Positions 10,559 to 33,427 of a DNA stretch of 64,000 bases are shown piece after piece (position 1 is the first letter of the stretch; every line of letters starts with the position of its first letter). The translations under genes were made by a program, and so were the position numbers. The stretch is from contig CANNOC010000010.1 in assembly GCA_947507155.1 (NCBI GenBank), forward strand, positions 1 through 64,000. The letters run 5' to 3'. Source of the DNA: an uncultured Collinsella sp. (GTDB taxonomy: Bacteria; Actinomycetota; Coriobacteriia; Coriobacteriales; Coriobacteriaceae). The notes beneath the pieces are model-generated. The model worked only from the letters and a program-made list of their open reading frames with translations. It was not told the origin of the DNA and searched no databases.

Positions 10559-10589
10559 GAGCTGGAGTCGTAGAGGTGCCTTGCAAGTG

Positions 10590-12161: not shown

Positions 12162-12414
12162 GACGAATCTGATATGGAGTCTGCCTTGGGACTCCTTGCT
12201 TCTGCATATAGCCGATTTGAAATGCGGGTATAGATGGCCTCTTGATTTACGCGTTTCCCATTGGTTTCGCGCCCGTTGCTGCGCCGTTTCCAAGATTGCG
12301 GGACCGTTTCCATTCGACAACGGAGCGTTTAACAACGCCGTATCTGGTCTACACCAGTTGCCCCTCGGCCGCATTATGGGCGCCGACAACGTTCATGCGA
12401 CCAAGGGAGAGCGA

Positions 12415-14187: not shown

Positions 14188-14261
14188 AATCGACTGCCTG
14201 CCATCCGCAACGTTAAAATGCTGCAATGAGGCACAAGACTTGCGTTGCGGATGGACGGATT

Positions 14262-14924: not shown

Positions 14925-14926
14925 TA

Positions 14927-14945
14927 TAGATACCGACGGTATGTA
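14927..14945. promoter_or_regulatory. TetR operator-like palindrome 1
   Basis: TAGATACC-GAC-GGTATGTA, with ATACC/GGTAT arms around a three-base centre. It shares 14 of 19 positions with the palindrome at 14992-15010 and lies just after the tetR stop codon. Confidence 0.65.
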
Positions 14946-14957
14946 ATAGATTTGAGA

Positions 14958-14979
14958 GGGCAGCTCCGGCTGCCCTTTT
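14958..14979 (+). terminator. terminator of the tetR gene
   Basis: GGGCAGC and GCTGCCC arms enclose the tetraloop TCCG and are followed by TTTT. It separates the regulator from the MFS gene, so the pump needs its own promoter. Confidence 0.85.
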
Positions 14980-14990
14980 CAAGTCATTAA

Positions 14991-15011
14991 ATACATACTA
15001 ACAGTATGTAT
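14991..15011. promoter_or_regulatory. TetR operator-like palindrome 2 at the MFS promoter
   Basis: Perfect nine-base arms ATACATACT and AGTATGTAT around AAC, ending 12 bases before the MFS start codon. Binding here would block transcription or translation initiation of the pump. Confidence 0.75.
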
Positions 15012-15023
15012 AGGGGTAGGCTT

Positions 15024-16286: not shown

Positions 16287-16346
16287 CGCGTTGGGGCACC
16301 ATGAATTTGTGGAGGCAGTGGCACGCCGCGCCGGGACGGCATTATT

Positions 16347-16402
16347 TGGGCATGCCTCTCCTTCGTCTACAATATCGTGCAGACGAAGGAGAGGCATGCC
16401 CA
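16347..16402 (+). promoter_or_regulatory. perfect 22-bp hairpin masking the HAD-gene start
   Basis: Bases 16347-16368 are an exact reverse complement of 16381-16402, with a 12-base loop (ACAATATCGTGC). The right arm holds the ribosome-binding site AAGGAG, the ATG at 16396 and the first base of the ATG at 16402. In the mRNA this would bury translation initiation. No T-run follows, so a terminator is unlikely. Confidence 0.85.
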
Positions 16403-17259: not shown

Positions 17260-17290
17260 TGTGGCAAAGGGGCAGCGCCTTTGTCACATT
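17258..17290. terminator. bidirectional terminator (HAD gene / helicase gene)
   Basis: AATGTGGCAAAGG pairs with CCTTTGTCACATT with one G-T type mismatch. It lies across the ends of two convergent genes and includes the stop of the minus-strand gene. The CAAAGGGG loop border links it to the GGGACAGG-type palindromes elsewhere in the window. Confidence 0.65.
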
Positions 17291-20200
17291 CTAGAGTTCT
17301 CAATTAGCCAGTGCTCGTAGGCGCGCTGCATGACCTCGGTTTTATCGGCTTTTTTGCGGCAGCCCTTCTGCTCCTCGATGGCAAGCTCATAGGCATCGCT
17401 CTGCTCAAAAGCGCTGGTATCCCAAGCACCGTGTTCAATGCGAGCCCATGTGGCATCGATGAGCTGCTCGAGTTCGGCAATGTCAACGGCGTTGGCGGTT
17501 GTCGCGAACGGCGGGCGGAGCTCGCCCGTCGTCTTGTCGGGTTCTACATAGTAGTCGCCCATGGAGGTGACGGTGTAGCCATAAAACTCGGGTGACGCTT
17601 CGACCAGCAGTTTGTAAAACTTGAGCTGACGATGGTAGCCTGCAGGGATTTCTTTGCCAAAGCCAGTCTTGTAGTCGACGATCTGCACCGTCTTAGCTGC
17701 ATCGTCAACGAGGAGCAGGTCAAGAAAACCAAAGAGTGGAGTTCCACCGGCAGTTAGACACTGCATGTTCGCTTCCGTGATGCAACGGTAGCCACGTACG
17801 TGCTCGACAAGCCAAGGGACGAATGCATTACAAATGCGTTCGAAGCGGTCCGAATAGCGATGGACGTCCTCGGGGGCAAAATCGAGCCACGAAATCTGCT
17901 GGCGATACTCGGCCTCAATTGTCTCAATTGCCGCCGCGCCATCGGTTGCCATCCGATTAACGATTTCTTCGAACATCGCGTGAACGATAGTGCCGAATTC
18001 GGTTTGAATCGTGGGCGCCGTGGGTAGGCGCACAATCTGCTTCTCGGGGAAGTGCTGGCTATTTGCGCATCCAGGCTCGTACGTCACAAAGTTGTTGAGT
18101 GCCGTGGCAGAGAGGTGTTTTACGTCGGTGTGAGGATCCAAAAGCGCACGGAGCTCGGGCGTATCAAACACGTAGTTGTCGCGCCATTCGGTTTCGATGG
18201 CGGCACTGAGCTGGTCCGCTTTGGCAGAAACCTCGCAAGAGTCGATAAGCCCCGTGAGCTCCTGCAGCGCCGATCCTCCGGCGCGGTAGAGCTCGAGGTG
18301 TCGCTTAGCGCGTGTGATGGCTACAAACAGCAGACGGCGCGCATCGTCGTCATCCTTTTCGTCGCGAATAAGCAGGTTGGACGGGTACAGACTCATGCCG
18401 CCAGCACCTTTGTGCCAGGTGGAGTCGTCGGCGTCGAGCAGGTAGACGCAATCGAACTGCAGACCTTTCGAGCTGTGAGCGCTAGTAAGTCGAACGGCTC
18501 CCGGTGTGCCAAGATCGATCGATGCGTCGATGCTCACACCAAACTTTTGCGCGGCGTCGAGTTTGTCGACAATATCGGGCAGGCGAAGCGTGCGTCCCAT
18601 GCGGCGCGCGTCGCCCATTTCACCCTCAGCAAAGGTGAGTAGGGCGCGGATGCCGGCATTGAATTCGGCGGCGCCCAGCGGATCCTGTTTCTTATGATCC
18701 TGATAATAGTCAAGGCTGCGTTTGAGAATCTTAAAGAGCAACGCTCTGACCGGGGAGGCGCCGGCCTCGGCCGCCCACTGCATAAGGTCGTCGTACAGCT
18801 CTTTGACGCGGGCGCTATTACTCTCGCACATGGCGGGCATCCAGTCGCCGCGATGTTCGCGCTTGGCGCTGAGCGCAAACGTCACGGACGATGGATGGTC
18901 GCCGCCCAGCTCGGCGGCACAGACAATCTGCGGAAGATAGCTGCTGGCGAGCTCCTTCTGCCCGCGAGCAAGCGCGGTAACGCAGCGCAACAGTGCCAGC
19001 ATCGTCTGCATACGCTCGGAAGCAAAGAGATTCTGCCGCTCGCGATACGAAAAAGGTACCTTCTCCTTAACGAGGAAGGGAATCAGCGAGCGCAAGGCGG
19101 CGTGCTTGGCAGAGATGACTGCAATTCCTTCATTGGGATCTTCGCATTCATCGAGATAGTGATCATCAAGCCGCTGCCTAATACTCGCAGCGACAGCGGC
19201 GTATTCTTCAGCTTTGCCGGCGTAGACGTTCTCGCTAAAGCCGACCTGATCACCCTGAGGCTTGGAGGCTTCGATTGACTTATTCGAGCTGGCGTCGAGG
19301 CGATATTCAATTTGGCGTGCGATAGCTTGACCAAGCTCAACGATGGCGGGCGTGGAGCGATAGTTGGTCTTGAGCACGATGCTCCGGGGCGAAAACTCGG
19401 CCGCAAACTGGTTGGCACATTCGATCGTGGCGCCCTGAAAGCGCATGATGGCCTGATCGTCATCGCCAACGGCCATGATATTGGGCACATCAACGCCGTC
19501 GCAGAGCAGCTCGATGATGCGCATCTGGGCACCATTGGTGTCCTGGAACTCGTCAACTTGGATATAGGTATAGGTGTCCTGGAGTACTTGGCGCAACGCG
19601 TCATTGTGTTCTACGGCGTTAACAAAGTCGCCGATCATGTCGTCGTAATCGTAGAGATGGTGCTGGTCGAGCTCGCTCTGGTAGCGACGCGCGACGTCGC
19701 AAGCGGTCTTAAGTCGCTCGCTCTGCTCCGCAATCTTAAAGGTGCGTCCCTGAGAGTTGCTGCCTCCAAAGAAGGCATCGCGCACTTTGGTGTATCCCGA
19801 GGATTTGCCCTTCTCATCGATGAGCTCGGTGCGGCGAACGGTATCGCGCAGCTCAAGGATATAGGGCACGTACGTACCGGCGGGACAGTCGATCGGGCGG
19901 GTGAGCGATGTGGGCGCCATGCCGCAGGCACGCTCGACCTCTTCCTCAAAGCGTTCGGCCAACGCGGCGCTTGCCCTTTCGCAGGCGAGCGTAAGCAGCT
20001 CGGAATGTTCGGTGAGCCAGACAGCGGCGTCGATATTCTGCTGCGCGATGGCGCCCAGCGTGTCGTAGTCCAGGCCACTGCGTTTGATCTTGGAGACAAA
20101 GCCAATCATCTTGCCAATATTTGGCGCAGGCATATCAGGTGACCCTCCGCCTAACGGAGAACCAAAGGGCAGTGATTTGAGCAGCCGATCAAAAATCTCT

Positions 20201-20571
20201 TGCTGGTGCAGGCTAGTAACAAGCGTGTCGGTCGATGGGCGCATGAAGTACTCGGGATAGCGCGACCTGATGCTGCTTGCAAATCCGTGAAACGTACTGA
20301 CTTCGATGCCGTAGGCGTCGCGCCCAATCAGCTCGATCAGGCGCTTGCGCATGGCTTCCGCGCCCGCCTCGGTATAGGTAAGGCAGAGGATGTTGCGCGG
20401 GGCGACATCGCACTTGGCCAGGATGTTCGCCGCGCGCAGGCTCAGTAGCTGCGTCTTGCCGGTGCCGGGACCGGCAATGACGAGCAGCGGGCCATCTAGG
20501 CATTCGACGGCCTCGCGCTGTTCGGGGTTCAGGTTCTTAAACGATTCGTCGAATTTAGGGGTTGTAGCCAT
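17284..20571 (-). CDS. UvrD/Rep-type helicase fused to a PD-(D/E)XK nuclease
   Basis: A 1095-residue superfamily-1A helicase. The Q motif is NLNPEQREAV and Walker A is AGPGTGKT (33-40). Motif II is VDEFQDTN and motif III is VGDDDQAIMRFQGA. Motif IV/V regions include TSAHSSKGLQFDCVYL, and motif VI is LLFVAITRAKRHLELY. The last ~280 residues carry a RecB-like nuclease with LLVDDAAKTVQIVDYKTG and QLKFYKLLV. This layout matches bacterial AddA/PcrA-like DNA repair helicases with a C-terminal PDDEXK_1 domain. The likely role is recombination repair or defence. It begins six bases after the WYL gene stop (same strand), so a regulator-plus-effector pair is possible. Confidence 0.9.
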   Translation of the reverse strand: MATTPKFDESFKNLNPEQREAVECLDGPLLVIAGPGTGKTQLLSLRAANILAKCDVAPRNILCLTYTEAGAEAMRKRLIELIGRDAYGIEVSTFHGFASSIRSRYPEYFMRPSTDTLVTSLHQQEIFDRLLKSLPFGSPLGGGSPDMPAPNIGKMIGFVSKIKRSGLDYDTLGAIAQQNIDAAVWLTEHSELLTLACERASAALAERFEEEVERACGMAPTSLTRPIDCPAGTYVPYILELRDTVRRTELIDEKGKSSGYTKVRDAFFGGSNSQGRTFKIAEQSERLKTACDVARRYQSELDQHHLYDYDDMIGDFVNAVEHNDALRQVLQDTYTYIQVDEFQDTNGAQMRIIELLCDGVDVPNIMAVGDDDQAIMRFQGATIECANQFAAEFSPRSIVLKTNYRSTPAIVELGQAIARQIEYRLDASSNKSIEASKPQGDQVGFSENVYAGKAEEYAAVAASIRQRLDDHYLDECEDPNEGIAVISAKHAALRSLIPFLVKEKVPFSYRERQNLFASERMQTMLALLRCVTALARGQKELASSYLPQIVCAAELGGDHPSSVTFALSAKREHRGDWMPAMCESNSARVKELYDDLMQWAAEAGASPVRALLFKILKRSLDYYQDHKKQDPLGAAEFNAGIRALLTFAEGEMGDARRMGRTLRLPDIVDKLDAAQKFGVSIDASIDLGTPGAVRLTSAHSSKGLQFDCVYLLDADDSTWHKGAGGMSLYPSNLLIRDEKDDDDARRLLFVAITRAKRHLELYRAGGSALQELTGLIDSCEVSAKADQLSAAIETEWRDNYVFDTPELRALLDPHTDVKHLSATALNNFVTYEPGCANSQHFPEKQIVRLPTAPTIQTEFGTIVHAMFEEIVNRMATDGAAAIETIEAEYRQQISWLDFAPEDVHRYSDRFERICNAFVPWLVEHVRGYRCITEANMQCLTAGGTPLFGFLDLLLVDDAAKTVQIVDYKTGFGKEIPAGYHRQLKFYKLLVEASPEFYGYTVTSMGDYYVEPDKTTGELRPPFATTANAVDIAELEQLIDATWARIEHGAWDTSAFEQSDAYELAIEEQKGCRKKADKTEVMQRAYEHWLIENSRM

Positions 20572-20577
20572 GAAATA

Positions 20578-21588: not shown

Positions 21589-21810
21589 GCTGTCTCCTTT
21601 CGCCGGCAGGGTATCAGCCGGAGATGCAAAACAAGACCCGTTATTGGGACTCATTGTAGCCCGCGCGACCGTAGTATTCGCAGCAATAAGGGCCCGAATA
21701 GGGCGAAAGGTGGTTAAACGGAAATCGGCGGTTTGGCTGGTTGGTGTGACGTGCACTCTGTTGGCTTGGGGCCGGTTCCGGTTTACAAGGATCAGAACAG
21801 GAGAAATGCG

Positions 21811-22908
21811 ATGGCAGACATCAAAGTCTTTGCCGAGAATCTTGAGGATTCAACCAAGGAGCAGATCGAGGAGATCTCTAGCTGCCCGGCGTTTGAAGGC
21901 GCCAAGATCCGCATCATGCCCGATGCCCATAAGGGCAAGGGCTGCGTGATTGGTTTTACGGCAAACTTGGGCGACAAGGTCATTCCTAATTTGGTGGGCG
22001 TCGACATCGGATGCGGTATGTACTGCGTACCGCTTGCAGAGACTATTGCGCGCGATGACCTCATTCAGTTCAATCGCGACGTGAAGCGCGCAGTGCCCAC
22101 GGGCTTTAGCCTTCATCGCGATCCTGCCTGCGTACTTGCGGACTTTGGCATGGAGTCGCGCGATTGGCTTCAGGATAAACGCAAGGTTGAGCGCTCCATG
22201 GGCACGCTGGGCGGCGGTAACCACTTCATTGAACTCGACGAGGACGAGAATGGGTGCCAATATCTGGTCGTGCACACCGGCTCGCGCAACATGGGCAAGC
22301 AGACGGCGGAGCACCATCAGGCGCTGGCGCAGAAGACGTGCACGGCAGATATCCCTGACGAGCTTAAGTATCTCGTGGGAGATCTTTCTGCCGAGTATCT
22401 CGTCGATATGCATAACTGCCAACGCTTCTCGAATCAGAACCGCAAGGCGATTGTCGCACAGATTGTTGAGCGTACGGGAATTCGACTCGACGGAGACGGC
22501 TTTACCACCATGCACAACTACATCTCGGAAGGCGGCATGATTCGCAAGGGCGCCATTAGCGCTCATGCAGGCGAGATGGCGCTGATTCCGTTCAACATGC
22601 GCGACGGTGCCGTTATTGCGCGCGGCAAGGGAAACGAGGACTGGAACTGCTCGGCGCCGCACGGGACGGGTCGTGCGATGAGCCGCACCAAAGCATTCCA
22701 AACGCTCGATACCAGGTCGTTCGTTAACGAGATGCGCGATGCCGGCATCTACTGTCCGAGTGCATGCGAGACGACGCTCGATGAGTCGCCCGAAGCGTAT
22801 AAGCCTGCGGATGATGTATTGAGACTCATGGACCCGACGGTTGATGTTATTCACCGACTCAAGCCGATTTGGAATTTTAAGGCTACTGGTAAGCGCGGTA
22901 GGCGTTAG
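21811..22908 (+). CDS. rtcB: RtcB-family RNA ligase
   Basis: A 365-residue GTP- and Mn-dependent 3'-phosphate RNA ligase. Metal ligands are seen in VGVDIGCGM (Asp65, Cys68) and GTLGGGNHFIEL. The guanylylated His is His284 in SAPHGTGRAMS, and YCPSACETTLDESPEAYK is typical of the C-terminus. This is the short bacterial type. CAGGAG upstream supports ATG 21811. In bacteria RtcB repairs or reseals RNAs cut by stress endonucleases and is often controlled by regulators divergent from it. Here the divergent neighbour is the WYL gene. Confidence 0.92.
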   Translation: MADIKVFAENLEDSTKEQIEEISSCPAFEGAKIRIMPDAHKGKGCVIGFTANLGDKVIPNLVGVDIGCGMYCVPLAETIARDDLIQFNRDVKRAVPTGFSLHRDPACVLADFGMESRDWLQDKRKVERSMGTLGGGNHFIELDEDENGCQYLVVHTGSRNMGKQTAEHHQALAQKTCTADIPDELKYLVGDLSAEYLVDMHNCQRFSNQNRKAIVAQIVERTGIRLDGDGFTTMHNYISEGGMIRKGAISAHAGEMALIPFNMRDGAVIARGKGNEDWNCSAPHGTGRAMSRTKAFQTLDTRSFVNEMRDAGIYCPSACETTLDESPEAYKPADDVLRLMDPTVDVIHRLKPIWNFKATGKRGRR

Positions 22909-22918
22909 GAGGGTTGCG

Positions 22919-23737
22919 ATGACGCTAAAGATGGACTCCAGGGACGACCGAATTGGCCGTTCTGTGAGTATGGGCGAGCTGATGAGCTTCCCGGGCGTGA
23001 TGCCGCCGTCCGCGAATCGGTGCGGCGGGAATCGTGGAGAGCGTGATGACGAGGGTTTTGACCTCAGCGGTTTTCACAGTCGGCTGGTTTCTGGACTCGA
23101 CCGTGGTGTGGAAACGTCACTGTTCGCAGCTCCGCGCTTGTTGAAAGCCGGCATGTCGGCCGATGACGCCCTAGGTGGCGGCGTTGGGCTGGGCAAGCTC
23201 AGCGTGATTGGCGGTGCGCATGAAGACGTTTCGAACGTGCTGGCACACGCGGTGCTGCGCCTGAGTGAGCAGTGCGCCGTGCTTTACGTGCCGATTCGGG
23301 AGCGTGAAGAGGATGCGATTGCCCGGCTTATTCGTGCCGAGATGGATGGCAAGGTGTCAGAGGATCCTGAGGAGCAACAGGTTGAGACAATCCGCGCAAC
23401 GATGCGCCTCAAGCAGCGCAACCTGGGCATCTTTGTCGAAGACAACATGACCATGGACCTTGTAACAAGTTGGTTGCTCGGCGACCAAATGTGGAACAGA
23501 GCAGTGCTAAAGGACGTCGTAGCCGTAATCGACGGACTCGAAATGCTCGACGACAACCGCTCGGTAAACGCTGTCCTGCGTGACTTGCGCAACATGCTCA
23601 GCCCAACATCCGCCATCCTGGCAGGATGCTTTGCGGCGGAGGGCCGAGAGGACGACGCAACATTCGCGGAGACCCACTGCAATGCAGATGTCCTGGTCCA
23701 CATGAGTTCCGATGGTGAAAATCCCATCTACATGTGA
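22919..23737 (+). CDS. DnaB/RecA-fold-like protein with degenerate Walker A
   Basis: A 272-residue protein of uncertain function, ten bases after rtcB and preceded by TAGGAGGG. It resembles the ATPase half of a replicative helicase or KaiC. GGGVGLGKLSVIGG precedes GAHEDVSNVLAHAVL, where DnaB has its P-loop. AVLYVPIREREEDAIARLI corresponds to the DnaB step into strand 2, and DVVAVIDGLEMLDDN is Walker B-like. The Gly-x-Gly-Lys-Ser/Thr of a working P-loop is missing, so ATP hydrolysis is doubtful. The first ~70 residues are low-complexity. A terminator follows, and translation is probably coupled with rtcB. Confidence 0.6.
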   Translation: MTLKMDSRDDRIGRSVSMGELMSFPGVMPPSANRCGGNRGERDDEGFDLSGFHSRLVSGLDRGVETSLFAAPRLLKAGMSADDALGGGVGLGKLSVIGGAHEDVSNVLAHAVLRLSEQCAVLYVPIREREEDAIARLIRAEMDGKVSEDPEEQQVETIRATMRLKQRNLGIFVEDNMTMDLVTSWLLGDQMWNRAVLKDVVAVIDGLEMLDDNRSVNAVLRDLRNMLSPTSAILAGCFAAEGREDDATFAETHCNADVLVHMSSDGENPIYM

Positions 23738-23772
23738 GTTTTCGGCTAGGTCCATAGCCGAAAACAATAGTC

Positions 23773-23806
23773 CGGCCCGTGACGCATCTGCACCACGGGC
23801 CGTTTT
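23773..23806 (+). terminator. terminator of the rtcB operon
   Basis: CGGCCCGTG pairs with CACGGGCCG and is followed by TTTT. It lies 36 bases after the stop of the RecA-fold-like gene. Confidence 0.85.
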
Positions 23807-23877
23807 CAAGAGATATTTATTTCACATGCTCGCTGGCATGCCATGAGGGGCTTACTTTAACGGCGCGCAACAATAAG

Positions 23878-23913
23878 GCTGCTCGCCCCGCTTGGTATGA
23901 TGAGCGAGCAGCC
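23878..23913 (-). terminator. terminator of the mcrBC operon
   Basis: GGCTGCTCGC pairs with GCGAGCAGCC. On the minus strand the hairpin is followed by TTATTGTT. It starts three bases after the McrC stop codon. Confidence 0.75.
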
Positions 23914-23915
23914 AT

Positions 23916-24971
23916 CTATTCTTCGACTAAAGCTGCGATGTCATCGAGTTGCTTGCGAATACCTAAAAACTCTGTGTCAAGATCGAGTGTCCGACAGTGG
24001 AAGCGATAGCCGGTTTCATCCCAGCTTTCGCACATTGACCTCGCGTTATCAGTGAGAGCGTAAAGAAGCATGCCCTCGACCGCCCCTGTTTTTCGCGACC
24101 ATGATTCATGGGCAACGTAGGAATAGATTTGATTGCGATGGGCTGGGGATAGAATTTCGGATTCCATGTGCTGGTGAAGAATAGTCCCGTAACATTTGCA
24201 GTCAATGATGAGGGTTCGACCGGGGCCTTCAAGAGTGACGTCTGTCAGTAATGCCGGCAATATCTTTGGAGCGTTGTCCGATCCTGATGCCACTCGATGG
24301 GCAGATGCCCTAAGATCGGGATGCTCGGCGCGATAATACTCCAGTACAAAATGTTCAAAGAGAGCGGAGAGTTTCTGATTGTCCCGCCATTTGCCAAAAG
24401 CGGTATCACCTGAATAAAGTGTCGGCAGGCTATTCTCAATTACGGCATGACAGACTCCCATAAGAAGGCGATAACCGCGGTTTCCTCCGTGAAAGGAGAG
24501 CCTTCCCCAGTCGATAGAGGAAGGTCGAATATTGTCGATAGAATCGAGCTGACGATAATAACTTCTAAGTAGGTTTTTCCGTTCGGTGCCGACTGCGCCA
24601 GAGCGAGCGAGGGTGCCCACTGCGCATTTAAGCACCCTGTTCATCTGAGTATTGACTGTCCATTCGTCGCTGGTACACCTAATGCTTCGGCGCCCAGCGG
24701 AGCGCAGCTGTGATGTCCGAGCCATATCGATTTTCCCGCGAATACCAAGAAAGTCCTCGGAAACCTCGGCATAACCGTGCTCCAGACCACGTTTGAGTCG
24801 TGATGAGATGCCGATTGAGAGGATGGCCGCAAGTAGGTCTTCGACGTGCTCAAACTCCTCGGTCTCGATAGACGCATATTCATCGAGACCGAGGGCTTTG
24901 AAGGCATAGGCCATCATGTAGTAGATGTTTCGAACGATGACCTTTTCTTCAGCTCTGGGCATTGACGGCAC
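23916..24971 (-). CDS. mcrC: McrC-like nuclease subunit of an McrBC restriction system
   Basis: A 351-residue protein starting IVRNIYYMMAYAFKAL, the conserved N-terminus of McrC proteins, with LGIRGKIDMART and CTSDEWTVNTQMNRVLKCA in the middle. The catalytic PD-(D/E)XK core is LLTDVTLEG (Asp244) then LIIDCKCYG (Asp257, Lys259). McrC associates with the McrB GTPase ring and cuts DNA once translocation is triggered, classically at modified cytosines. The gene overlaps mcrB by 23 bases and ends at a terminator. The region is AT-richer than the core genome, as expected for a transferred defence module. Confidence 0.9.
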   Translation of the reverse strand: MPSMPRAEEKVIVRNIYYMMAYAFKALGLDEYASIETEEFEHVEDLLAAILSIGISSRLKRGLEHGYAEVSEDFLGIRGKIDMARTSQLRSAGRRSIRCTSDEWTVNTQMNRVLKCAVGTLARSGAVGTERKNLLRSYYRQLDSIDNIRPSSIDWGRLSFHGGNRGYRLLMGVCHAVIENSLPTLYSGDTAFGKWRDNQKLSALFEHFVLEYYRAEHPDLRASAHRVASGSDNAPKILPALLTDVTLEGPGRTLIIDCKCYGTILHQHMESEILSPAHRNQIYSYVAHESWSRKTGAVEGMLLYALTDNARSMCESWDETGYRFHCRTLDLDTEFLGIRKQLDDIAALVEE

Positions 24972-26526
24972 CTTCGAGGACGCTTATTGCCGCATCCGCT
25001 TTGGCTCGATCATCGAACCAATATTCACGGATGAGTGGGTTGAGTTCGTATTTAACGATGTCGTCAACACACCCTTTGCCGGAGCGACAGAGGTAACTAT
25101 GTCCAATCTCGTACCCTTCACCGAGCGCGGGGTCGGAGGCAATGTCGATGTTTACCGAGCGTACCGCATTGACGAGAGAGGGCATTCTTTTGTCGGCACA
25201 TTTCGATGCATCTTTGAGGAAAGAGGTGTTATTGAGAGCTGGGGTCATGCGAAAGAAAGCGAACCTTCTGCGAAGTGCATAGTCGATAAGGGCAATGCTA
25301 CGATCAGCGGTGTTCATGGTGCCGATAATGAAGACATTGTCTGGTACGAAAAAGGGCCTTCCATCGATAGCGAGACTGGTGGGATTGCCGCGATGTCCGG
25401 CTTCTATAAGGCTCAAGAGTTCTCCAAATACCTTTGAGATATTCGCTCGATTGATCTCGTCGATTAGGAAGAAGTAGTCACTGTTGGGATCGCTTGCCGC
25501 TTTTTGACAGAATGAGGTGAAGACGCCCGCTTTGATATCGAATCCGCCTGCATCATTTGGACGGTATCCAATGACGAAGTCCTCATAGGTTGTCCCTTGG
25601 TGGAATTGAACGGTTTCTATCTTGGAGTTGTCTCGCTTGCCCATGAAGCTCCAAGCGAGTCTTTTTGCGCAAAACGTCTTCCCTGTTCCTGGAGCACCGT
25701 CGAGGATAAGATTTCGCTTTGCCTTAAGGAGTCGTTTGAGCTGTGAGAGATCATTTGCGTCAAGATAGACGTCATTTAAAAAGTCGTCGTCAGTGTATGC
25801 GCTGCCGTCTTTGCTTGGCGAGGCGTTGGAGTCCGTAGGCAATTCTGAATCTTCGGCAGGATTAGATGTAGCGTCTCGCTTCGGGGCTTTATGGTCAAAC
25901 GCTTCAGCCGAAATCTCGTAAAGGGGCCTACCCAGATGGCCCACCTTGTTAAGGAGCTCTAAATAACCGGTCCCATTTTGTTTGGATGACGTTACTAATA
26001 TGCCGTAAACACTTTCGAGATAATTTCTGCTTAGTTGATCAAAAGGCATGAACGTGTCGGGCCTGCACCAGAACAATGCCATGGAGAGGTTTGCAAAGCC
26101 GATATTCTTTTGGGCCAATACTCGATCGAACAAATTGATGAACTGGACGTGATCTTCGTCTTCTGGTGAGTATGCCATTGCCTCTTCGAAGAAATCCCAC
26201 TTCTCCTCAATGCTTGAGTCTATTCCGTCCATGTAACGCCAGCGCCTGTTATTTGAGGTGGGTACACCGGCATAGTCAGTGGGAATTGCGCCGTGAATAT
26301 CGAGGCGGGCAAAAATGCTTTCGATTACCTTGGTGCGGCTATCGTAGCTTATCGATCTGTTGAACAGAGACATGAACGTGAATGGATCCATTCTGTTTGT
26401 GTCTCCAGTATTTGCATTGTTCTTGCAGATTTCGAGAAGGGTTTCTTCGTCGTTTCGCATAGTCAGCAATTTTCGAGCGATTGCCGTGTAGGTATCGACC
26501 CATGTGAACTTCGTTTCGGTGTCCAT
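24949..26526 (-). CDS. mcrB: McrB-like AAA+ GTPase of an McrBC restriction system
   Basis: A 525-residue protein from ATG 26526 (GGGAG upstream). A further open frame to 26643 lacks support. The C-terminal half is the AAA+ motor, with Walker A GAPGTGKT (277-284), Walker B FFLIDEINR (353-360), the McrB GTP signature MNTADRS (404-410) and arginines in YALRRRFAF. The N-terminal ~250 residues are helical and should be the target-recognition module. I do not recognise it as the DUF3578 methylcytosine binder of E. coli, so the recognised DNA modification is unknown. The four-gene paralogue array lies directly upstream on the same strand. Confidence 0.9.
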   Translation of the reverse strand: MDTETKFTWVDTYTAIARKLLTMRNDEETLLEICKNNANTGDTNRMDPFTFMSLFNRSISYDSRTKVIESIFARLDIHGAIPTDYAGVPTSNNRRWRYMDGIDSSIEEKWDFFEEAMAYSPEDEDHVQFINLFDRVLAQKNIGFANLSMALFWCRPDTFMPFDQLSRNYLESVYGILVTSSKQNGTGYLELLNKVGHLGRPLYEISAEAFDHKAPKRDATSNPAEDSELPTDSNASPSKDGSAYTDDDFLNDVYLDANDLSQLKRLLKAKRNLILDGAPGTGKTFCAKRLAWSFMGKRDNSKIETVQFHQGTTYEDFVIGYRPNDAGGFDIKAGVFTSFCQKAASDPNSDYFFLIDEINRANISKVFGELLSLIEAGHRGNPTSLAIDGRPFFVPDNVFIIGTMNTADRSIALIDYALRRRFAFFRMTPALNNTSFLKDASKCADKRMPSLVNAVRSVNIDIASDPALGEGYEIGHSYLCRSGKGCVDDIVKYELNPLIREYWFDDRAKADAAISVLEGAVNAQS

Positions 26527-26765
26527 TTTGCTCCCGTCTTTAGCGGCCGCTTTAACAACAAATACTAGAACGTGGGCTTTGTGAAATAGTTGAGCAACAA
26601 AGGTGTGCGGACAATCTAGGCGGATGAGCGGTGGGATGGTCAAATGTCATCGTTAAGATCGCTATTCGGAAAAGTCTGCGTTGCCGCCGCGTCGACGTTC
26701 ATCTCGATTGGATCCGCCGCATCTGTTGATCGTCCCCTCGAGTACCGATATGCATCCAGCTTCCG

Positions 26766-27800
26766 TTATCGAGCACGATGCCGATATATATCCAGCCAAC
26801 CGGGTTCTTCTTCTTTGTTGTCGGTGCACTCTTCTAACAAGTCATCTATCCGGTCCGGCTTGATCTCTTGCAATGCCGTGCATTCTTCTGGCAAGGGCTG
26901 TGTTACTTTCTTTGCTCTGAACACGGGCGACAACATCAAGTTCGTGTGTGCCCATCCGGCAAAGCAACTGCCGTAGGGGATAGAGCCACATCTGATCTGC
27001 CCATCGCCATCGGGATACAGGCAGTCCAATTTCGAGTTTGCTACCAGGCAATAACAAGGGCCTGGTGCCCATGGCCTGCAGTCGATCTCAAGAATGTCGC
27101 CCTTTCTGTACGGCGTGGGCAGGTCGACATATGCCCCCTTGAACCACGGGCCAAAGATCCCACCCACAATGCAGTCGAGCACCTCGCCACATTCGCCCTC
27201 TTCTTCCCTGCAGATGTACTGGATTTCGCCGGAGACGTTTGCGTAGTAAGTGTAGTCCGGCTGCAGAAAGCCGTCGTATGGATATGAACAGCTCGGGTCG
27301 TTGGCAAGGTTGAACAGCTCGACCATCCAGTATGAGGACGATAAGTCTGTCATTTCGCTCCACTTGTCTGCGTATGCCTTCATTGCCGCAAGGGCGGCCT
27401 GCCAGGATGCCACGGGGAAGGGGCCATGCGTGATGGCGGATCCCACTTCGTTGCCGATAAAGCTAATTTCGCTAATAAGCAGCACCTTCCTGTTCCCGTC
27501 GACGGCCTTTAGCGCGTCTAGACAGTCATCGATGTAGTCGATACAGATCTCTGGCCCGTACCAAGAAAAGGTTTCGTCTGACGAACTGCGCTCGGCAGCA
27601 ACCAGCTTGCTGAGCATCTCCCGTTTGCGGTTGATTTCTATCGACGCGCCACTGATGATTTGCGAGTAATGATCGCCACTCAGCAGCTGCGGATTATGCA
27701 GCAAATGCTCTCGCAGCTCCGGAGATTCGATCAGGTTGATTATTTCTTCGTGCACGATAGTCTCCGAGTTGTTGGTGCGACTTCTTGTGGATTCGGACAT
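26766..27800 (-). CDS. unknown protein, single N-type unit of the tandem family
   Basis: A 344-residue soluble protein that I cannot assign. It contains one copy of the ~340-residue unit: SPELREHL (26-33), then HGPFPVASWQAALAAM (125-140), then PTPYRKGDILEIDCRP (228-243). It matches the first half of the 710- and 708-residue proteins upstream. It is eight bases downstream of the matching second-half gene, so the pair looks like a two-unit gene that was split and reordered. There are no membrane segments or signal peptide, and Trp, Asp and Glu are abundant. An antiviral or nucleic-acid-binding role is speculation from the McrBC neighbour 240 bp away. Confidence 0.6.
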   Translation of the reverse strand: MSESTRSRTNNSETIVHEEIINLIESPELREHLLHNPQLLSGDHYSQIISGASIEINRKREMLSKLVAAERSSSDETFSWYGPEICIDYIDDCLDALKAVDGNRKVLLISEISFIGNEVGSAITHGPFPVASWQAALAAMKAYADKWSEMTDLSSSYWMVELFNLANDPSCSYPYDGFLQPDYTYYANVSGEIQYICREEEGECGEVLDCIVGGIFGPWFKGAYVDLPTPYRKGDILEIDCRPWAPGPCYCLVANSKLDCLYPDGDGQIRCGSIPYGSCFAGWAHTNLMLSPVFRAKKVTQPLPEECTALQEIKPDRIDDLLEECTDNKEEEPGWLDIYRHRAR

Positions 27801-27808
27801 GGTGGCCT

Positions 27809-28882
27809 TTATTCAAATAGCTGCGGGTACTTCTCCTTGAGCGGTGCCTGATCCAGACGTAGCTCTTCCAGGTTGCGCTTTGCCTTGGACTCCATCCTTA
27901 TGGTGTCGATAAACGCGATGAGTGAGTCGACATACAGATCGCCGCGCAGGTAGGCCTGGGCGGCGATTAAAATTCGCTGCTCGTCTTCGAGTGGTTTGCG
28001 ATAGTACTCTAGATTCAGGTAAAGCGGGTCTGGCTCGCCGATGTAGAGGGGAAACGTCTCGTTGTAGGTAATCGAGCAGCCAGTGGCGCGCATGTTGCTG
28101 ATATCCCCTGCATGGCGATAGTGCTCGAGGCGCTGCTGCGCATGATCAAGCCATTCGTCAGAACGGTCTGCCTGCCGAAGCTCTGCCTCAAGCTTTGTCC
28201 GGTCCCACGTGGGCAGATCGAACAACGTGAACGGCTCACGGGCACTGCCTTGCGGCGTCCAGACGATATCGCCGGTGTGAAACGGCGTGGGGATATCGAC
28301 CCAGATGAACTCGAATGCGATCTCCCAATCGTTCTCAACGGGGCCGGCTGAAGGGCAATAAACGGAAAGGGGCTCACCTTTGCCGTTCACCATGAGCCAA
28401 TCTTCCCGGTGATGTTCTTCGTCGGCATCGAGCGGGCACCGGGTGATGCGTACGCGTGTCTCTGGACGGCTCGCCAGTTCATCATCACCGCGCAACGCCT
28501 CGGCACATTTCTCATAACAGCTGAATGGCGCGCCGAAGGCCCCACAAAGTTGCCCGTCGGGCACAATCTCCTCTTCATACTGATAAACGTAGCCCGTCCC
28601 ACTCGCAAACGCATCGACGCACCGCTTGTTGTAATCGATTGTCCAGCTCAAAAAAGCATGGAAATCGGGGATGGCCGGCCTTCCAAGACCGGCATGGGTT
28701 GCTTCCAACGAACAATTGGGCATGGTACGCGCGATCTCCTGCCAGGCTTCGCACTTCTGCTCGAGCGTGGCGGTCTTCGAAAACCAAACCAGATAGGCGG
28801 CCTCGATGGTGCTGGGCTGGAAGTCGATACTGCGCAGGTGCCCCCGAATGTCCTGGGAGTCCACAAAATCCAGGATGTTCAT
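27809..28882 (-). CDS. unknown protein, single C-type unit of the tandem family
   Basis: A 357-residue soluble protein of unknown function, beginning MNILDFVDSQDIRGHLRSID. It corresponds to the second half of the long paralogues: the SQDIRGHL motif, then FSCYEKCAEALRG, then IPTPFHTGDIVW, then YYRKPLEDEQRIL with AYLRGDLYVDSLIAF near the end. AAAGAGGAG upstream supports the start at 28882. It begins two bases after the 710-residue gene stops. No catalytic motif is visible. Confidence 0.6.
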   Translation of the reverse strand: MNILDFVDSQDIRGHLRSIDFQPSTIEAAYLVWFSKTATLEQKCEAWQEIARTMPNCSLEATHAGLGRPAIPDFHAFLSWTIDYNKRCVDAFASGTGYVYQYEEEIVPDGQLCGAFGAPFSCYEKCAEALRGDDELASRPETRVRITRCPLDADEEHHREDWLMVNGKGEPLSVYCPSAGPVENDWEIAFEFIWVDIPTPFHTGDIVWTPQGSAREPFTLFDLPTWDRTKLEAELRQADRSDEWLDHAQQRLEHYRHAGDISNMRATGCSITYNETFPLYIGEPDPLYLNLEYYRKPLEDEQRILIAAQAYLRGDLYVDSLIAFIDTIRMESKAKRNLEELRLDQAPLKEKYPQLFE

Positions 28883-28884
28883 GG

Positions 28885-31017
28885 TTAGCTCCTCTTTGTT
28901 TTGAATCGTGCCGGCGGGGCTATCGTGTTATCGAACAGCTCCGGATAGCGGGACTTGAGCCCGCCGTCTTCTCCTTCAAACCGCTCGGCTTTTTTCTTGA
29001 CCAGCGCCTGCAGCTCGAAAAGACTTGATAGCGCAATAAGTGAGTCAAGACCCAGATTGCCGTCGAGATATGCCCGCACGCCGTACAGAATTCTCGCCTC
29101 CGGTTTGAGCGGGGTACGGCAGTATTCCATATCGAGAAGAAAACAACTCGGCTCTCCGATATAGATGGGGTACTCCAGGGGATATTCAATCTGACAGCCG
29201 TAGGCGTACATGTCGCTCGTATCGCCATTTTGCCGATGGTGCCTGAGCAGGTCGTCGGCCTTATTTGCGGCGCATTCCCTGTAGGTGGAAGGCGGAAGCT
29301 CATCCATGACTCGCTTCGTGGTCCATGTCTGCATATTGAGAAGCAGCATGGGGTCGCCAGGGTCGCCGTGCCGACAAATGATGTCGCCGGCGTGGAATGG
29401 CGTCGGGATGCCAAACCACATCAGCGCAAAGGCAAAAGTGGGGTCTTCGCCCTCGCGTTCCTTGTCGATGCAGCGCAGCTGGCAATCCATGACCTTGCCA
29501 TTTGCGTCGAGCATGAGCTTATCGGCGGCATAGTAGTCTTCGTCCGGATCGATCGGGCGGCGTGTTACTTCAATCGAGGTAGGATTCTCCCCCTCAAGCT
29601 CATTCCAGATTGCCTCGAAACATTTTTCGTAGCTAGTGTAGGGGCCATAATTGCACCCGCTCTCATGGGGACTTCCCGTCTTGTCCTCAAAGAAATACAT
29701 GTGCTTGCCAGGTTGTTTGAACCGGGCGATTTTCTTGCGCTCCCATCTGATGACGTCGCGAAGAAAGACATGGAAGTTGGGGATATTGAACGTGCCGTAT
29801 CGCCTGCTCATCGCGCAATTGGGCATGTTTTCGAGAATCTTTTGCCAGGCCTCGATCTTCTGGTGCAGCGTCTTTTCGCTCGAACGGTCGACGATGAACG
29901 CCGCCTCGGGCGTGGTGGGTTCGTAGCCGATGCCTTCCAAATGCTCTCTGATATCGGGCGAGTCGAGAAACTCGAGAATGTCCGAACGTATGGCGTTGAC
30001 GCCGGCGCCGGCCGATGTGCGGTATGGCTGCAGGCAGTCGTGTACGACCGATCCGTCCGACCATTGTTTGCCGTAGCTGGGATCATCGTGCAGCTTTTTC
30101 GAGAGCTCGAGCATAAAGGGGCAATCATCGGGCAATTCGCCGGTATAACGTTCGGCGGTATAGAGGGCAGAGGGCGTGAAGTCGTCGAGGAAGCCGTCCG
30201 TGAAATCCCTCAAGCGGAGATTGCCTTCCTCAACGCCGTAGATTTTGCTCGGATAGGCGCACCAAACCTGGCCTTTGAACGAACTATCGTAGTCGTCTTC
30301 GAGCACGATGGCAAAACGGGGACCGTGATCGAAGGGCCGACCGTCGATCTTGATGATGTCGCCGGGGACCCAGGGAGTGTAAAAGACCTCACCATTGGCG
30401 CAGAAGTGCTTGCTATTGTTCCACGGCAAGTGATCGATGCTTTGGTGCGGAGTCCGCTGATTCCGGCGATCGCTCAAAAAGACCAAATCGCCAGCCATGG
30501 TCGCGGCGAATATCAGCGAGGCTTGAGCGCGCGGGCGGTCGTGTAAGTCTTCGGCGGTATAGAGCTTAATCTGCCAGAATGATTCGGACCAATCTTCATC
30601 GGGGTCATCATCGACGTATTGCTTCATGAGGATTTGCGCAGCTTCCCATGAGGCAACGGGGAAGGGGCCATCAAAGGTGTCGTGCCCACGCTCCTCTTCA
30701 CTGTAAAACATGCCGGAGATTAGAAGGGTGCCGTGGTCGCGGTCAACGTTGTAAAGCATATCGAGCGCGCTGTTGAGCTGGTCAAGGCCGGAGTCAATCG
30801 CCTCGGCGTAATCCGATGAGACCTCTTTGCGAAGCTGCTCGAGCATGGCTCGTTTTTCGTCGAGCGTCTTGAGGGAGCCGCCGATGATTCTACAGAGGGA
30901 GCCATCTGCCATTCCCATGTGTTTGAACATATGAACACGCAGCTCATCGTTCTTGATGCAACTGCAAACGAGCTCCCTGCCGGCATCGGTGATCACGGTA
31001 TCTGCTTTGCTGTCCAT
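28885..31017 (-). CDS. unknown two-unit protein (paralogue 2)
   Basis: A 710-residue protein from ATG 31017 (TTGGAGG upstream). It comprises two related units. The first has NDELRVHM (23-30), DGPFPVASWEAA (116-127) and TPWVPGDIIKIDGRPF (214-229). The second has SPDIREHL (353-360), YGPYTSYEKCFEAI (457-470) and PTPFHAGDII (538-547). The same three landmarks recur about 330 residues apart, which points to an ancient internal duplication. I know no family for it. It is a close paralogue of the gene at 31184-33310, and both share a leader palindrome. It is hydrophilic with no signal peptide, so presumably cytoplasmic. Confidence 0.65.
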   Translation of the reverse strand: MDSKADTVITDAGRELVCSCIKNDELRVHMFKHMGMADGSLCRIIGGSLKTLDEKRAMLEQLRKEVSSDYAEAIDSGLDQLNSALDMLYNVDRDHGTLLISGMFYSEEERGHDTFDGPFPVASWEAAQILMKQYVDDDPDEDWSESFWQIKLYTAEDLHDRPRAQASLIFAATMAGDLVFLSDRRNQRTPHQSIDHLPWNNSKHFCANGEVFYTPWVPGDIIKIDGRPFDHGPRFAIVLEDDYDSSFKGQVWCAYPSKIYGVEEGNLRLRDFTDGFLDDFTPSALYTAERYTGELPDDCPFMLELSKKLHDDPSYGKQWSDGSVVHDCLQPYRTSAGAGVNAIRSDILEFLDSPDIREHLEGIGYEPTTPEAAFIVDRSSEKTLHQKIEAWQKILENMPNCAMSRRYGTFNIPNFHVFLRDVIRWERKKIARFKQPGKHMYFFEDKTGSPHESGCNYGPYTSYEKCFEAIWNELEGENPTSIEVTRRPIDPDEDYYAADKLMLDANGKVMDCQLRCIDKEREGEDPTFAFALMWFGIPTPFHAGDIICRHGDPGDPMLLLNMQTWTTKRVMDELPPSTYRECAANKADDLLRHHRQNGDTSDMYAYGCQIEYPLEYPIYIGEPSCFLLDMEYCRTPLKPEARILYGVRAYLDGNLGLDSLIALSSLFELQALVKKKAERFEGEDGGLKSRYPELFDNTIAPPARFKTKRS

Positions 31018-31071
31018 AGTAACCTCCAATTCGGTCGTTGCCGTTAGCATCCATCAGAGGTTGTGCTTTGT

Positions 31072-31090
31072 GGTCCCATTAACGGGTCCC
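31072..31090. promoter_or_regulatory. leader palindrome upstream of paralogue 2
   Basis: GGTCCCATTAACGGGTCCC, about 55 bases before the start codon of the 710-residue protein. It matches the perfect palindrome at the same place upstream of the next paralogue. A regulator-binding site or conserved mRNA leader is likely. Confidence 0.6.
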
Positions 31091-31113
31091 ATATGAATCT
31101 CGCGTCAAACATA

Positions 31114-31183
31114 TTTTTGGAAACGCCACTGGTGCATGGGCGGCTGCGTGTTGAATGGACAATCGGTAGTGGCGTTTCAAAAA
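31114..31183 (-). terminator. hairpin after paralogue 1
   Basis: AAACGCCACT (31121-31130) and AGTGGCGTTT (31168-31177) are exact complements, with A/T-rich extensions on both sides. Placed directly after the minus-strand stop at 31184, it may end or reduce transcription between the two paralogues. Confidence 0.5.
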
Positions 31184-33310
31184 CTAAGCGTAACTGGCGC
31201 AACCTCCCTCTAAGAAGGGATCGGCCGTCGTATCGAACAGCTCCGGGTAGCGGTCCTTGAGCCAGCTGTCTGCATCCTCGAAGCCGCGTGCCTTTTTCTC
31301 CGCCAGCGCCTGTAGCTCGCATGCGCTGGCCATCGCGGCGAGCGAATCAACCGCCAGGTCACCTCTGACATACGCCCTGACGCCGTAGAGGATTCGCTCC
31401 TCCGACTTGAGCGGCTTACGATAATAGTCAATGTCCAAAAGAAAGCCCTCAGGCTCCCCAATGTAGAAGGGGAAATGCAAGGCGGATGAGACTTGGCACC
31501 CGTAGGCGTACATGTCGCTGGTGTCGCCGTCATATCGGTGCCAGCGCAATAGCTTGTCGGCCTTTTGAACGAGGCGCTCTTTGTAGACGGAGGAAGCAAG
31601 CTCTTTGTCGACTCGTTCGGATCCCCAAGTTTGCAGGTCAAACAGCACCATCGGCTCGTCGGGGCGTTGGAGGTTGCAGACGATGTCTCCGGCATGGAAG
31701 GGCGTTGGGATATCGAACCACATGTCCTCGAAATCGCTCGCGGTGCCCGCCTCGTCCCACTCACCCTCGAACCGGTAATCGCAAGACATTACTTCGCCGT
31801 TCGCATTGAGTAAGACCATGTCGTCGGCATAGTGGTCTTCGTCCGGGTCGATGGGGCGGCGAGTGATCTTGATCGCCTTTGGATTGTCGCCTTCGAATTC
31901 TCTCCAGATGGCATCGAAGCATTTTTGATAACTGCTGTACGGGCCGTAAAGAAGGTCGCATCGGTCGCGCCGGTCCCACGAGTAGTCCTCAAAGAAATAC
32001 AGACTCTGGCCGTCCGTCCTTTTAAAGTGTGCGAGCTTTCTTTGCTCCTGCCTGATGACATTGCGCAGAAAGGCATGAAAGTCAGGGATGTTGACCGTGT
32101 CGTTTCTGCGGCTCATGGCGCAATTGGGCATGGTGTCGATGATCTTTTGCCAGCCTTCGAGCTTTTGCTGCAGCGTCGCTTTATGCGAGCGGTCGACGAT
32201 AAAAGCCGCTACGGGCGTGGTGAGCTCGTAGTTGATTCGTTGAAGGTGCTCCTTAATGCTGCGCGAGTCCAAAAACTCAAAGATGTCCGGACGAATATCC
32301 AACTCACTTTGGCTGGTAGGCTTGCAGCGCGGCTGCAGGCAATCGTGCCCGACCGAGCCTTCGGACCACTGCTTGCCGTAGTCAGGGTTGTCGTGCAGCT
32401 TCTGCGAAAGTTCGATCATAAAGGCGCAGTCGTCCGGCAGGTCACCGGTGTAGCGCTCGGCGGTGTAGAGGGCAGATGGGATGAAGGGGTCCAAGAGACT
32501 GTCGCTGAAGGTGCCGGATGAAAGCGAACCCTCCTTAACACCATGATCTCTACTGGGCCCTGCGCACCAGATCTGTCCCCGGAGCGTGTGCTCGTAGTCG
32601 TTTTCGAGCACAATGGCAAAGCGAGGCCCGTGGTCGAAGGGGCGACCGTCGATTTTGAGGATGTCGCCCGGTACCCACGGCGTGTAGATAGGCTCGTTGT
32701 TCGTGCAGAACCGCCTGCTATCGTTTCGCCAGACGCTTTCGACATGCGATTTGCGAGTGCGGTGATTGCGCAGATCACGGAGGAATATAAGCTCGCCGTC
32801 CCTAGTTGCCGCAAACGTCAGGGAGGGCTGCGCCGTTTGGTGCTCGTGCAGGTCTTCCGCGGTGTAGAGATTGATCTTCCAGTACGATTCGGACCAGTCG
32901 TCGTCAGGATACTCTTCGATGTAGTGCTTCATGAGCGTTTTCGCGGCTTCCCAGGATGCGGTGGGGAAGGGGCCGTCAAGGGCATCGACGTCGCGCTCCT
33001 CCTCGTTGTAGAGCATGACGTACAGTAGGAGGATTCCGCGGTCGCGCTCGACGTTGTTGAGCATGTCGAGCGCGCAGTTGAGCTGGGTGAGATGCGAATC
33101 GATATCTTCGGTCAGCTTCGGCGAAACCTCTTTGTGGAGTTGCTCAAGCATGGCGCGCTTTTCGTCAAGCGTTTTCAGCGAGCCGGCGATGATCGGCGCT
33201 GGCCAGTATAAGTATTTGCGCATGTGGTCTCGCAGCTCTTGGCTTTTGATGCAGCTGAGGACGAGGTCTTTGCCGGCATCGGTGATGCCATCGCTTGCCT
33301 GATTGTTCAT
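31184..33310 (-). CDS. unknown two-unit protein (paralogue 1)
   Basis: A 708-residue protein from ATG 33310, with AAGGAGG upstream. A second ATG at 33340 lacks a site. It parallels the 710-residue neighbour over its whole length: KSQELRDHM, DGPFPTASWEAAKTL and TPWVPGDILKIDGRPFDHGP in the first unit, then SRSIKEHL, YGPYSSYQKCFDAI and PTPFHAGDIV in the second, ending with AYVRGDLAVDSLAAMASACE. It is the first gene of the four-gene array that leads into mcrBC. No known domain is recognised. It could act as a sensor, adaptor or immune effector, but nothing in the sequence shows which. Confidence 0.65.
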   Translation of the reverse strand: MNNQASDGITDAGKDLVLSCIKSQELRDHMRKYLYWPAPIIAGSLKTLDEKRAMLEQLHKEVSPKLTEDIDSHLTQLNCALDMLNNVERDRGILLLYVMLYNEEERDVDALDGPFPTASWEAAKTLMKHYIEEYPDDDWSESYWKINLYTAEDLHEHQTAQPSLTFAATRDGELIFLRDLRNHRTRKSHVESVWRNDSRRFCTNNEPIYTPWVPGDILKIDGRPFDHGPRFAIVLENDYEHTLRGQIWCAGPSRDHGVKEGSLSSGTFSDSLLDPFIPSALYTAERYTGDLPDDCAFMIELSQKLHDNPDYGKQWSEGSVGHDCLQPRCKPTSQSELDIRPDIFEFLDSRSIKEHLQRINYELTTPVAAFIVDRSHKATLQQKLEGWQKIIDTMPNCAMSRRNDTVNIPDFHAFLRNVIRQEQRKLAHFKRTDGQSLYFFEDYSWDRRDRCDLLYGPYSSYQKCFDAIWREFEGDNPKAIKITRRPIDPDEDHYADDMVLLNANGEVMSCDYRFEGEWDEAGTASDFEDMWFDIPTPFHAGDIVCNLQRPDEPMVLFDLQTWGSERVDKELASSVYKERLVQKADKLLRWHRYDGDTSDMYAYGCQVSSALHFPFYIGEPEGFLLDIDYYRKPLKSEERILYGVRAYVRGDLAVDSLAAMASACELQALAEKKARGFEDADSWLKDRYPELFDTTADPFLEGGCASYA

Positions 33311-33362
33311 GTCGGCCTCCTTATTGATCGTTACCGGCATGATGCAACGGGTGCGGCTATTG

Positions 33363-33384
33363 TTGGTCCCATTAACGGGACCAA
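33363..33384. promoter_or_regulatory. leader palindrome upstream of paralogue 1
   Basis: TTGGTCCC-ATTAAC-GGGACCAA, perfect eight-base arms, 53 bases before the start codon. It matches the element at 31072, so the gene duplication included its leader, or one regulator controls both. Confidence 0.7.
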
Positions 33385-33394
33385 GTGGCGGCTC

Positions 33395-33427
33395 GATGTG
33401 ACAAAGGGACTGCCCTTTCGTCACATC
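33395..33427. repeat. CAAAGGGACTG palindrome
   Basis: GATGTGACAAAGGG pairs with CCCTTTCGTCACATC (one bulge) around ACTG. It is related to the palindromes at 17258 and 48490. It lies between the divergent array and tetR genes and could limit read-through from upstream. Confidence 0.6.

What the first reader, a model, noticed from the sequence alone, without database searches (positions are those of the whole stretch)
23916..33310. McrBC defence genes behind a four-gene array of an unrecognised protein family
All genes from 33310 down to 23916 are on the minus strand with small gaps: two ~710-residue two-unit proteins, two single-unit proteins, then mcrB and mcrC with a terminator at the end. 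The array family matches nothing I know and shares motifs (GPFPVASWEAA, GDIIKIDGRP). The region is AT-shifted near mcrBC. Co-localisation with a restriction system suggests the array is a defence component, a sensor or a toxin/immunity set. The functional link is inference.
Basis: partly seen in the sequence, partly recalled or inferred. Interest (0 to 1): 0.85.

Follow-up and report, generated by a model that had tools for sequence, protein, structure and literature searches.

The report
RNA-repair island with swappable McrBC slot
In a Collinsella gut bacterium, four genes of a protein family that has no name in the family libraries searched sit in a 16-kb island together with an RNA ligase (RtcB) and a WYL regulator, and they likely help the cell repair cut RNA, while the neighbouring McrBC restriction genes are replaced by an unrelated gene in the three other islands of this kind that were compared.

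Summary
The layout is real: two fused proteins, two single-unit proteins, then mcrB and mcrC, all on the minus strand. The fused proteins are A+B; the singles are one B and one A; A and B are remote homologues. The McrBC link fails. In three other Collinsella islands the array, RtcB, WYL and UvrD-nuclease genes stay, and a 3.0-kb mcrBC segment is replaced by an unrelated gene. McrC lies near A/B genes in 1 of 25 A/B genomes, the window itself. What recurs is RNA repair: a WYL gene within 10 kb in 15 of 25 genomes (0.7 expected) and RtcB within 20 kb in 8 of 25 (0.3 expected). Pnkp-ligase, KptA, RlaP and NADAR genes occur beside some relatives, and one B protein is fused to a cREC domain. The island (17,289-33,396) is bracketed by two 29-bp palindromes; 12 of 12 array-less regions examined lack it at that site. 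Best reading: A and B are accessory proteins of a WYL-regulated RNA-damage response, probably non-enzymatic modules that recognise substrates or partners. Their biochemical role is inference. Interest 0.6.

The parts
17260..17288 (.). left 29-bp palindrome that bounds the island
   Evidence: one of 2 matches in the 64-kb window, expected 0.00; a copy also at the empty sites
17284..20571 (-). UvrD helicase with a PDDEXK nuclease domain
   Evidence: UvrD-helicase E 4.5e-55, PDDEXK_1 E 1.8e-16; 93-98% identical in the three other array islands, 63-64% in L018, L077, L078
20578..21756 (-). WYL-domain regulator, divergent from RtcB
   Evidence: WYL E 8.6e-9; also found by the genome search
21811..22908 (+). 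RtcB-family RNA ligase (diverged, 365 aa)
   Evidence: PF01139 over cut-off in the window; motifs GVDIGCG, GGGNHFIE, VHTGSR, HGTGR present and aligned to solved RtcB chains
22919..23737 (+). conserved island gene without a family match (looks like a degenerate RadA/DnaB-type protein by eye only)
   Evidence: no Pfam, NCBIfam, PHROGs or PADLOC match; kept in L016, L017, L022
23768..26767 (.). exchangeable slot, filled here by mcrBC
   Evidence: the only large break in alignment to L016, L017 and L022 inside the island
23916..24971 (-). mcrC
   Evidence: PF10117 E 1.3e-20
24949..26643 (-). mcrB
   Evidence: AAA_5 E 8.1e-23; GAPGTGKT, DEINRAN and MNTADRS motifs
26766..27800 (-). A, single unit, 344 aa
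   Evidence: model pLDDT 79.9
27809..28882 (-). B, single unit, 357 aa
   Evidence: model pLDDT 88.1
28885..31014 (-). AB2, fused A+B, 709 aa (ORF may start at 31050)
31184..33310 (-). AB1, fused A+B, 708 aa, 60% identical to AB2
33397..33425 (.). right 29-bp palindrome that bounds the island

Best explanation
The array lies in a 16-kb island with RtcB and WYL genes, and its A and B proteins are likely accessory parts of a WYL-controlled response to damaged RNA. Shown: the array, the UvrD-nuclease, the WYL regulator and RtcB are present together in four Collinsella islands and absent together from the same site in the array-less strains examined; WYL and RtcB recur beside distant A/B relatives; mcrBC occupies an exchangeable slot. 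Inferred: when a ribotoxin, an anticodon nuclease or stress cuts RNA and leaves cyclic-phosphate ends, the WYL protein senses the ends or a derived nucleotide and switches the island on. The A and B proteins, which would be non-enzymatic modules with a helical N part and a small beta barrel, then bind the cut RNA or its ribonucleoprotein and bring in RtcB, or in other species a fused end-processing domain, to reseal it. Six units in four genes would widen the range of targets or form a hetero-oligomeric scaffold. McrBC would be independent cargo in the same island.
For: Island: array, UvrD, WYL and RtcB kept together in L016, L017 and L022 and absent next to TetR in 12 of 12 array-less regions fetched, of 40 genus genomes without the full array; precise ends at two palindromes. 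Recurrence: WYL within 10 kb of A/B genes in 15 of 25 genomes (0.69 expected), RtcB within 20 kb in 8 of 25 (0.34 expected); counting the three array genomes once, 13 of 23 and 6 of 23. Related islands with UvrD, WYL and B genes in L018, L077 and L078, two of them with RtcB. Neighbours of other relatives: KptA, Pnkp kinase-phosphatase-ligase, NADAR, RlaP. One B relative fused to cREC_REC, a domain tied in print to cyclic RNA ends and WYL regulators (PMC7824862, passages); WYL factors are proposed there and in PMC9503650 (passages) to sense such ends. RtcB keeps its motifs. Genes constrained.
Against: RtcB is absent from 10 of the 25 A/B genomes, and 7 of the 15 that have it carry it more than 20 kb from A/B genes or on another contig. 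WYL is not within 20 kb in 10 of 25. WYL and RtcB are themselves linked (10 of 19 RtcB copies have a WYL within 6 kb, 3 of them away from A/B genes), so the two counts are not independent. At least seven of the 22 non-array loci show no RNA-repair neighbour by eye. The expectation assumes random scatter, and the HsdS control expects only 0.35, so its 0 shows no excess rather than a deficit. RlaP is near in 1 of 25. No structural or sequence match shows RNA binding. The UvrD-nuclease in the island would fit DNA repair as well.
Confidence: 0.5

Rival explanations
1. The array is a McrBC accessory, sensor or immunity set.
For: Same strand and adjacency in the window.
Against: mcrBC is replaced in 3 of 3 other array islands while the array stays, and the replacement gene runs opposite to the array; McrC in 3 of 25 A/B genomes, near only in the window.
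Confidence: 0.05
2. A/B proteins are themselves toxins or RNases, or toxin and immunity pairs, and RtcB heals their damage.
For: A and B tend to occur together; multi-copy arrays; a Fic/Doc gene is near in L008; RNA-repair neighbours.
Against: Nearly invariant residues show no obvious catalytic set (judgement); no toxin family match; the array has both units fused in one chain.
Confidence: 0.15
3. A/B genes are passengers that share a recombination hot spot with WYL and RtcB but not a function.
For: The island sits between palindromes that also bracket other fillers in 6 of 11 array-less sites, and cargo is exchanged.
Against: HsdS, another exchangeable marker, shows no excess near A/B (0 of 25, 0.35 expected); the WYL link recurs in Clostridia with different layouts; the genes are constrained.
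Confidence: 0.15
4. The island is mainly a DNA-damage response: A/B work with the UvrD-nuclease under the WYL regulator.
For: UvrD-PDDEXK travels with A/B in Collinsella and in L018, L077 and L078.
Against: RtcB, KptA, Pnkp-ligase and RlaP neighbours act on RNA as far as known; UvrD of this type was seen only in the Coriobacteriia loci.
Confidence: 0.12

Closest known systems
RtcB-centred bacterial RNA-repair operons (rtcBA with RtcR; PMC7790460, start of abstract seen in a search listing)
   Same: an RtcB-family ligase beside a ligand-sensing transcription factor
   Different: no RtcA or RtcR among the island genes; a WYL regulator instead; carries UvrD-nuclease and the A/B array
WYL-regulated conflict and RNA-repair loci (PMC4012209, PMC9503650 and PMC7824862, passages; Burroughs and Aravind 2016 recalled, not held)
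   Same: WYL regulator with RNA-end-processing enzymes; cREC, NADAR and KptA are among the listed partners
   Different: the A/B family is not named in the passages I saw; I could not check the 2016 survey
McrBC type IV restriction (PMC11090510, passages)
   Same: the mcrB and mcrC genes of the window
   Different: the A/B array is not linked to McrC in the other 24 A/B genomes
Pnkp-based RNA repair (PMC4411300, start of abstract in a search listing)
   Same: a kinase-phosphatase-ligase gene lies near a B gene in L068
   Different: seen at one A/B locus only, not in the window's island

Membership tests
WYL-regulated RtcB RNA-repair island | RtcB-family ligase with its motifs | tested here: met
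   PF01139 over cut-off; motifs
WYL-regulated RtcB RNA-repair island | WYL regulator beside rtcB | tested here: met
   20578-21756, divergent from rtcB
WYL-regulated RtcB RNA-repair island | A/B genes recur beside WYL or RtcB elsewhere | tested here: met
   15 of 25 and 8 of 25, against 0.69 and 0.34 expected; not universal
WYL-regulated RtcB RNA-repair island | WYL protein controls the array and rtcB; RNA rejoining | not testable with these tools
   needs expression and repair assays
canonical rtcBA/RtcR operon | RtcA and RtcR next to rtcB | tested here: not met
   none of the island proteins given to Pfam is RtcA or RtcR; genome-wide presence not tested
McrBC type IV restriction (mcrB, mcrC) | AAA McrB with MNTADRS motif and McrC with PF10117 | tested here: met
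McrBC accessory (the array) | array stays with McrBC across islands | tested here: not met
   0 of 3 other islands have mcrBC; McrC near A/B in 1 of 25 genomes
KOW/SH3-like barrel proteins (fold) | structural match of the A/B C-terminal barrel | tested here: inconclusive

The most novel reading that the evidence does not exclude
A/B proteins are a new class of RNA-repair adaptor: modular, non-catalytic proteins that recognise broken RNA or stalled ribonucleoproteins and recruit RtcB, or fused cREC and possibly SLOG enzymes, multiplied in Collinsella into a six-unit recognition set carried on a palindrome-bounded exchangeable island.
Probability: 0.3. Interest if true: 0.78.

Novelty: new variant of a known kind. 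Interest (0 to 1): 0.6.

Why it matters
How bacterial RtcB systems outside the rtcBA/RtcR model choose their substrates, and what triggers them, is open (recalled, not taken from a call). A recurrent unnamed family found beside WYL, RtcB and, at single loci, Pnkp, KptA and RlaP genes in Coriobacteriia and Clostridia gives a testable candidate for missing recognition factors. The island also gives a clean natural comparison: precise empty sites, and the same island with and without mcrBC.

Tried and rejected

Mobile carriers: none found on plasmids with the AB2 protein, in phage records with P0126, or in viral contigs with the A alignment (197 stretches fitted the pattern, none a relative). Rfam: nothing at 15-36 kb. 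Generic restriction-island idea: HsdS is near A/B in 0 of 25 genomes, 0.35 expected, so no excess. McrBC partnership: rejected. Papers: Burroughs and Aravind 2016 (gkw722), the likeliest place for an earlier description, is not held, so I cannot say that the family is absent from print. Searches with Collinsella plus RtcB or McrBC terms returned 0 papers.

One search was a first enrichment estimate from hand-entered flags; one search replaces it. Gene calls outside the window are greedy longest ORFs from a script, not curated genes.

Full report
What is there. Six minus-strand genes run from 33310 to 23916. The first two encode proteins of about 710 residues, the next two single-unit proteins, the last two mcrB and mcrC (PF07728 and PF10117). 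Searching the own genome with the second large protein shows that its N half matches the 26766-27800 gene (29%) and its C half the 27809-28882 gene (37%). So the large proteins are A-B fusions and the order is AB, AB, B, A. A and B are themselves remotely related (hhalign probability 96%, E 1.8e-9). No family library names them. Codon comparison with two or three orthologues per gene gives dN/dS of 0.12-0.24 for the array genes and 0.05-0.11 for UvrD, WYL and RtcB, so these are real, constrained genes.

The genus.

The island. The array is the right end of a larger unit. Left of mcrBC lie a conserved gene without a family match (22919-23737), an RtcB-family RNA ligase (21811-22908), a WYL regulator divergent from it (20578-21756) and a UvrD helicase with a PDDEXK nuclease domain (17284-20571). 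All 43 genus genomes searched have the TetR gene that flanks the island. I fetched that region from 12 of the 40 genus genomes without the full array. None of the 12 has UvrD, WYL, RtcB or an array gene within the fetched stretch of 16-20 kb. One of the 12, G044, carries a related island elsewhere (L018). In the other 11, aligned to the window, homology stops near 17288 and resumes near 33396. Both points carry a 29-bp palindrome, which matches only twice in 64 kb with none expected. The three other islands (L016, L017, L022) are bracketed in the same way. Four of the 11 array-less sites have one palindrome and no filler (L085, L090, L091, L092). Six have 0.4-0.7 kb of filler between two palindromes. 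One (L082) has 4.2 kb of filler and one palindrome. The island therefore comes and goes as a unit at a palindrome-marked site; the mechanism is unknown, and how common the palindrome is genome-wide was not tested.

The mcrBC slot. G025, G037 and the named Collinsella aerofaciens record L022 carry the same island with the same array. Between the 22919 gene and the A gene they have a single unrelated gene instead of mcrBC, 348 residues in G025 and 374 in L022 (34% identical), with no library match. The replaced stretch in the window is 23768-26767 against L016. In all three the replacement gene runs opposite to the array. McrBC is thus interchangeable cargo. Of 25 genomes with A/B relatives, 3 have a McrC and only the window's is near A/B genes.

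Where the family lives. A/B relatives are patchy: 4 of 65 genomes of the family (fusion protein), 6 of 246 of the class (B profile), 10 of 348 in the family of a Lachnospiraceae genome and 7 of 391 in its class. The 25 genomes used below are those with a match. For these I placed RtcB, WYL, McrC and HsdS and computed distances from typed coordinates. WYL lies within 10 kb in 15 of 25 (0.69 expected if scattered at random), 13 of 23 when the three array genomes count once. RtcB lies within 20 kb in 8 of 25 (0.34 expected), 6 of 23 collapsed. HsdS, present in 11 of 25 genomes, is near in none, but only 0.35 is expected, so this shows no excess and no more. RtcB is absent from 10 of the 25. WYL and RtcB are themselves neighbours in 10 of 19 RtcB copies (within 6 kb), three of these away from A/B genes, so the two counts are not independent. 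RlaP occurs in 2 of 25 and is near in one.

Neighbours. I read 22 non-array loci by eye (L018, L019, L062-L081) and sent 40 chosen proteins to Pfam, three of them A proteins, plus two neighbours from L008. These were picked, not every gene (230 ORFs of 110 aa or more lie within 6 kb). Found: KptA (L065), a Pnkp kinase-phosphatase-ligase (L068), NADAR (L073), RlaP (L080), metallophosphatases (L066, L072, L079), a YpsA-type SLOG protein (L073), a 5'-nucleotidase (L072), and Fic and phosphoribosyltransferase proteins (L008). Seven loci show no RNA-repair or WYL neighbour by eye (L062, L063, L067, L070, L071, L076, L081), some because the contig ends close by; L069 and L079 have only a metallophosphatase-like gene.

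Fusions. One of 59 B relatives (P0137) is fused to a cREC_REC domain and three of 111 A relatives carry a precomputed CPCC domain; Pfam confirms P0137 and P0245 over cut-off, P0246 falls just under it. P0150 reads by eye as a B-A fusion. N-terminal parts beside or on other A proteins resemble SLOG domains only weakly (E 0.04-0.07, below cut-off). The cRec literature links that domain to cyclic RNA ends and WYL regulators (PMC7824862, passages), and WYL factors are proposed to sense RNAs with cyclic ends (PMC9503650, passages).

Structure. AlphaFold models have mean pLDDT 79.9 and pTM 0.82 for A, 88.1 and 0.87 for B. By the secondary-structure strings both have an N-terminal helical part, a middle alpha/beta part and a later mostly-strand part that starts at the conserved P-x-P-[FY]-x-x-G-D motif; both end in helices, long ones in B. 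Nothing in PDB matches at E 0.001, nor in the viral models for B. Both models give weak KOW/SH3-like and Rubisco-small-subunit-like alignments, which I use only as a hint of nucleic-acid or protein binding. Nearly invariant positions show no obvious catalytic set; this is a judgement, not a test.

Reading. The gene company, the shared presence and absence, and the fusions point to a response to damaged RNA that the WYL regulator controls and that RtcB executes here and other repair enzymes elsewhere. The most economical role for A/B is recognition or scaffolding. What is shown is linkage and co-mobility; sensing, RNA binding and recruitment are inferred.

Noticed in passing
window 17260-17288 and 33397-33425; L083, L084, L086-L089: The same 29-bp palindromes that bound the island also bracket 0.4-0.7 kb fillers in six array-less strains, as if the site takes different cassettes.
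   Followed up: partly
G025:C1:219762-221925 (in L016): The second fused gene is broken into two frames in G025 while the other array genes are intact.
   Followed up: no
L016:10337-11383 and L022:11229-12350: The gene that replaces mcrBC belongs to a family without any library match, 34% identical between the two strains.
   Followed up: partly
L019, L063, L066, L073, L074, L081: A small protein family of about 110-180 aa recurs near A/B genes in six loci and has no Pfam or PADLOC match for the member tested.
   Followed up: partly
L074:16389-17873: A DUF2828/DUF7788 protein with a VWA part, near RtcB and a B gene; a link to Ro/TROVE proteins is only recalled.
   Followed up: no
window 10557-12254 and 14187-16363: Two further stretches left of the island are absent from several or all compared strains, so the neighbourhood is variable.
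   Followed up: no
protein P0232: A database protein joins the front of an A protein to the end of the island's WYL regulator, either a deletion within the island or an assembly error.
   Followed up: no
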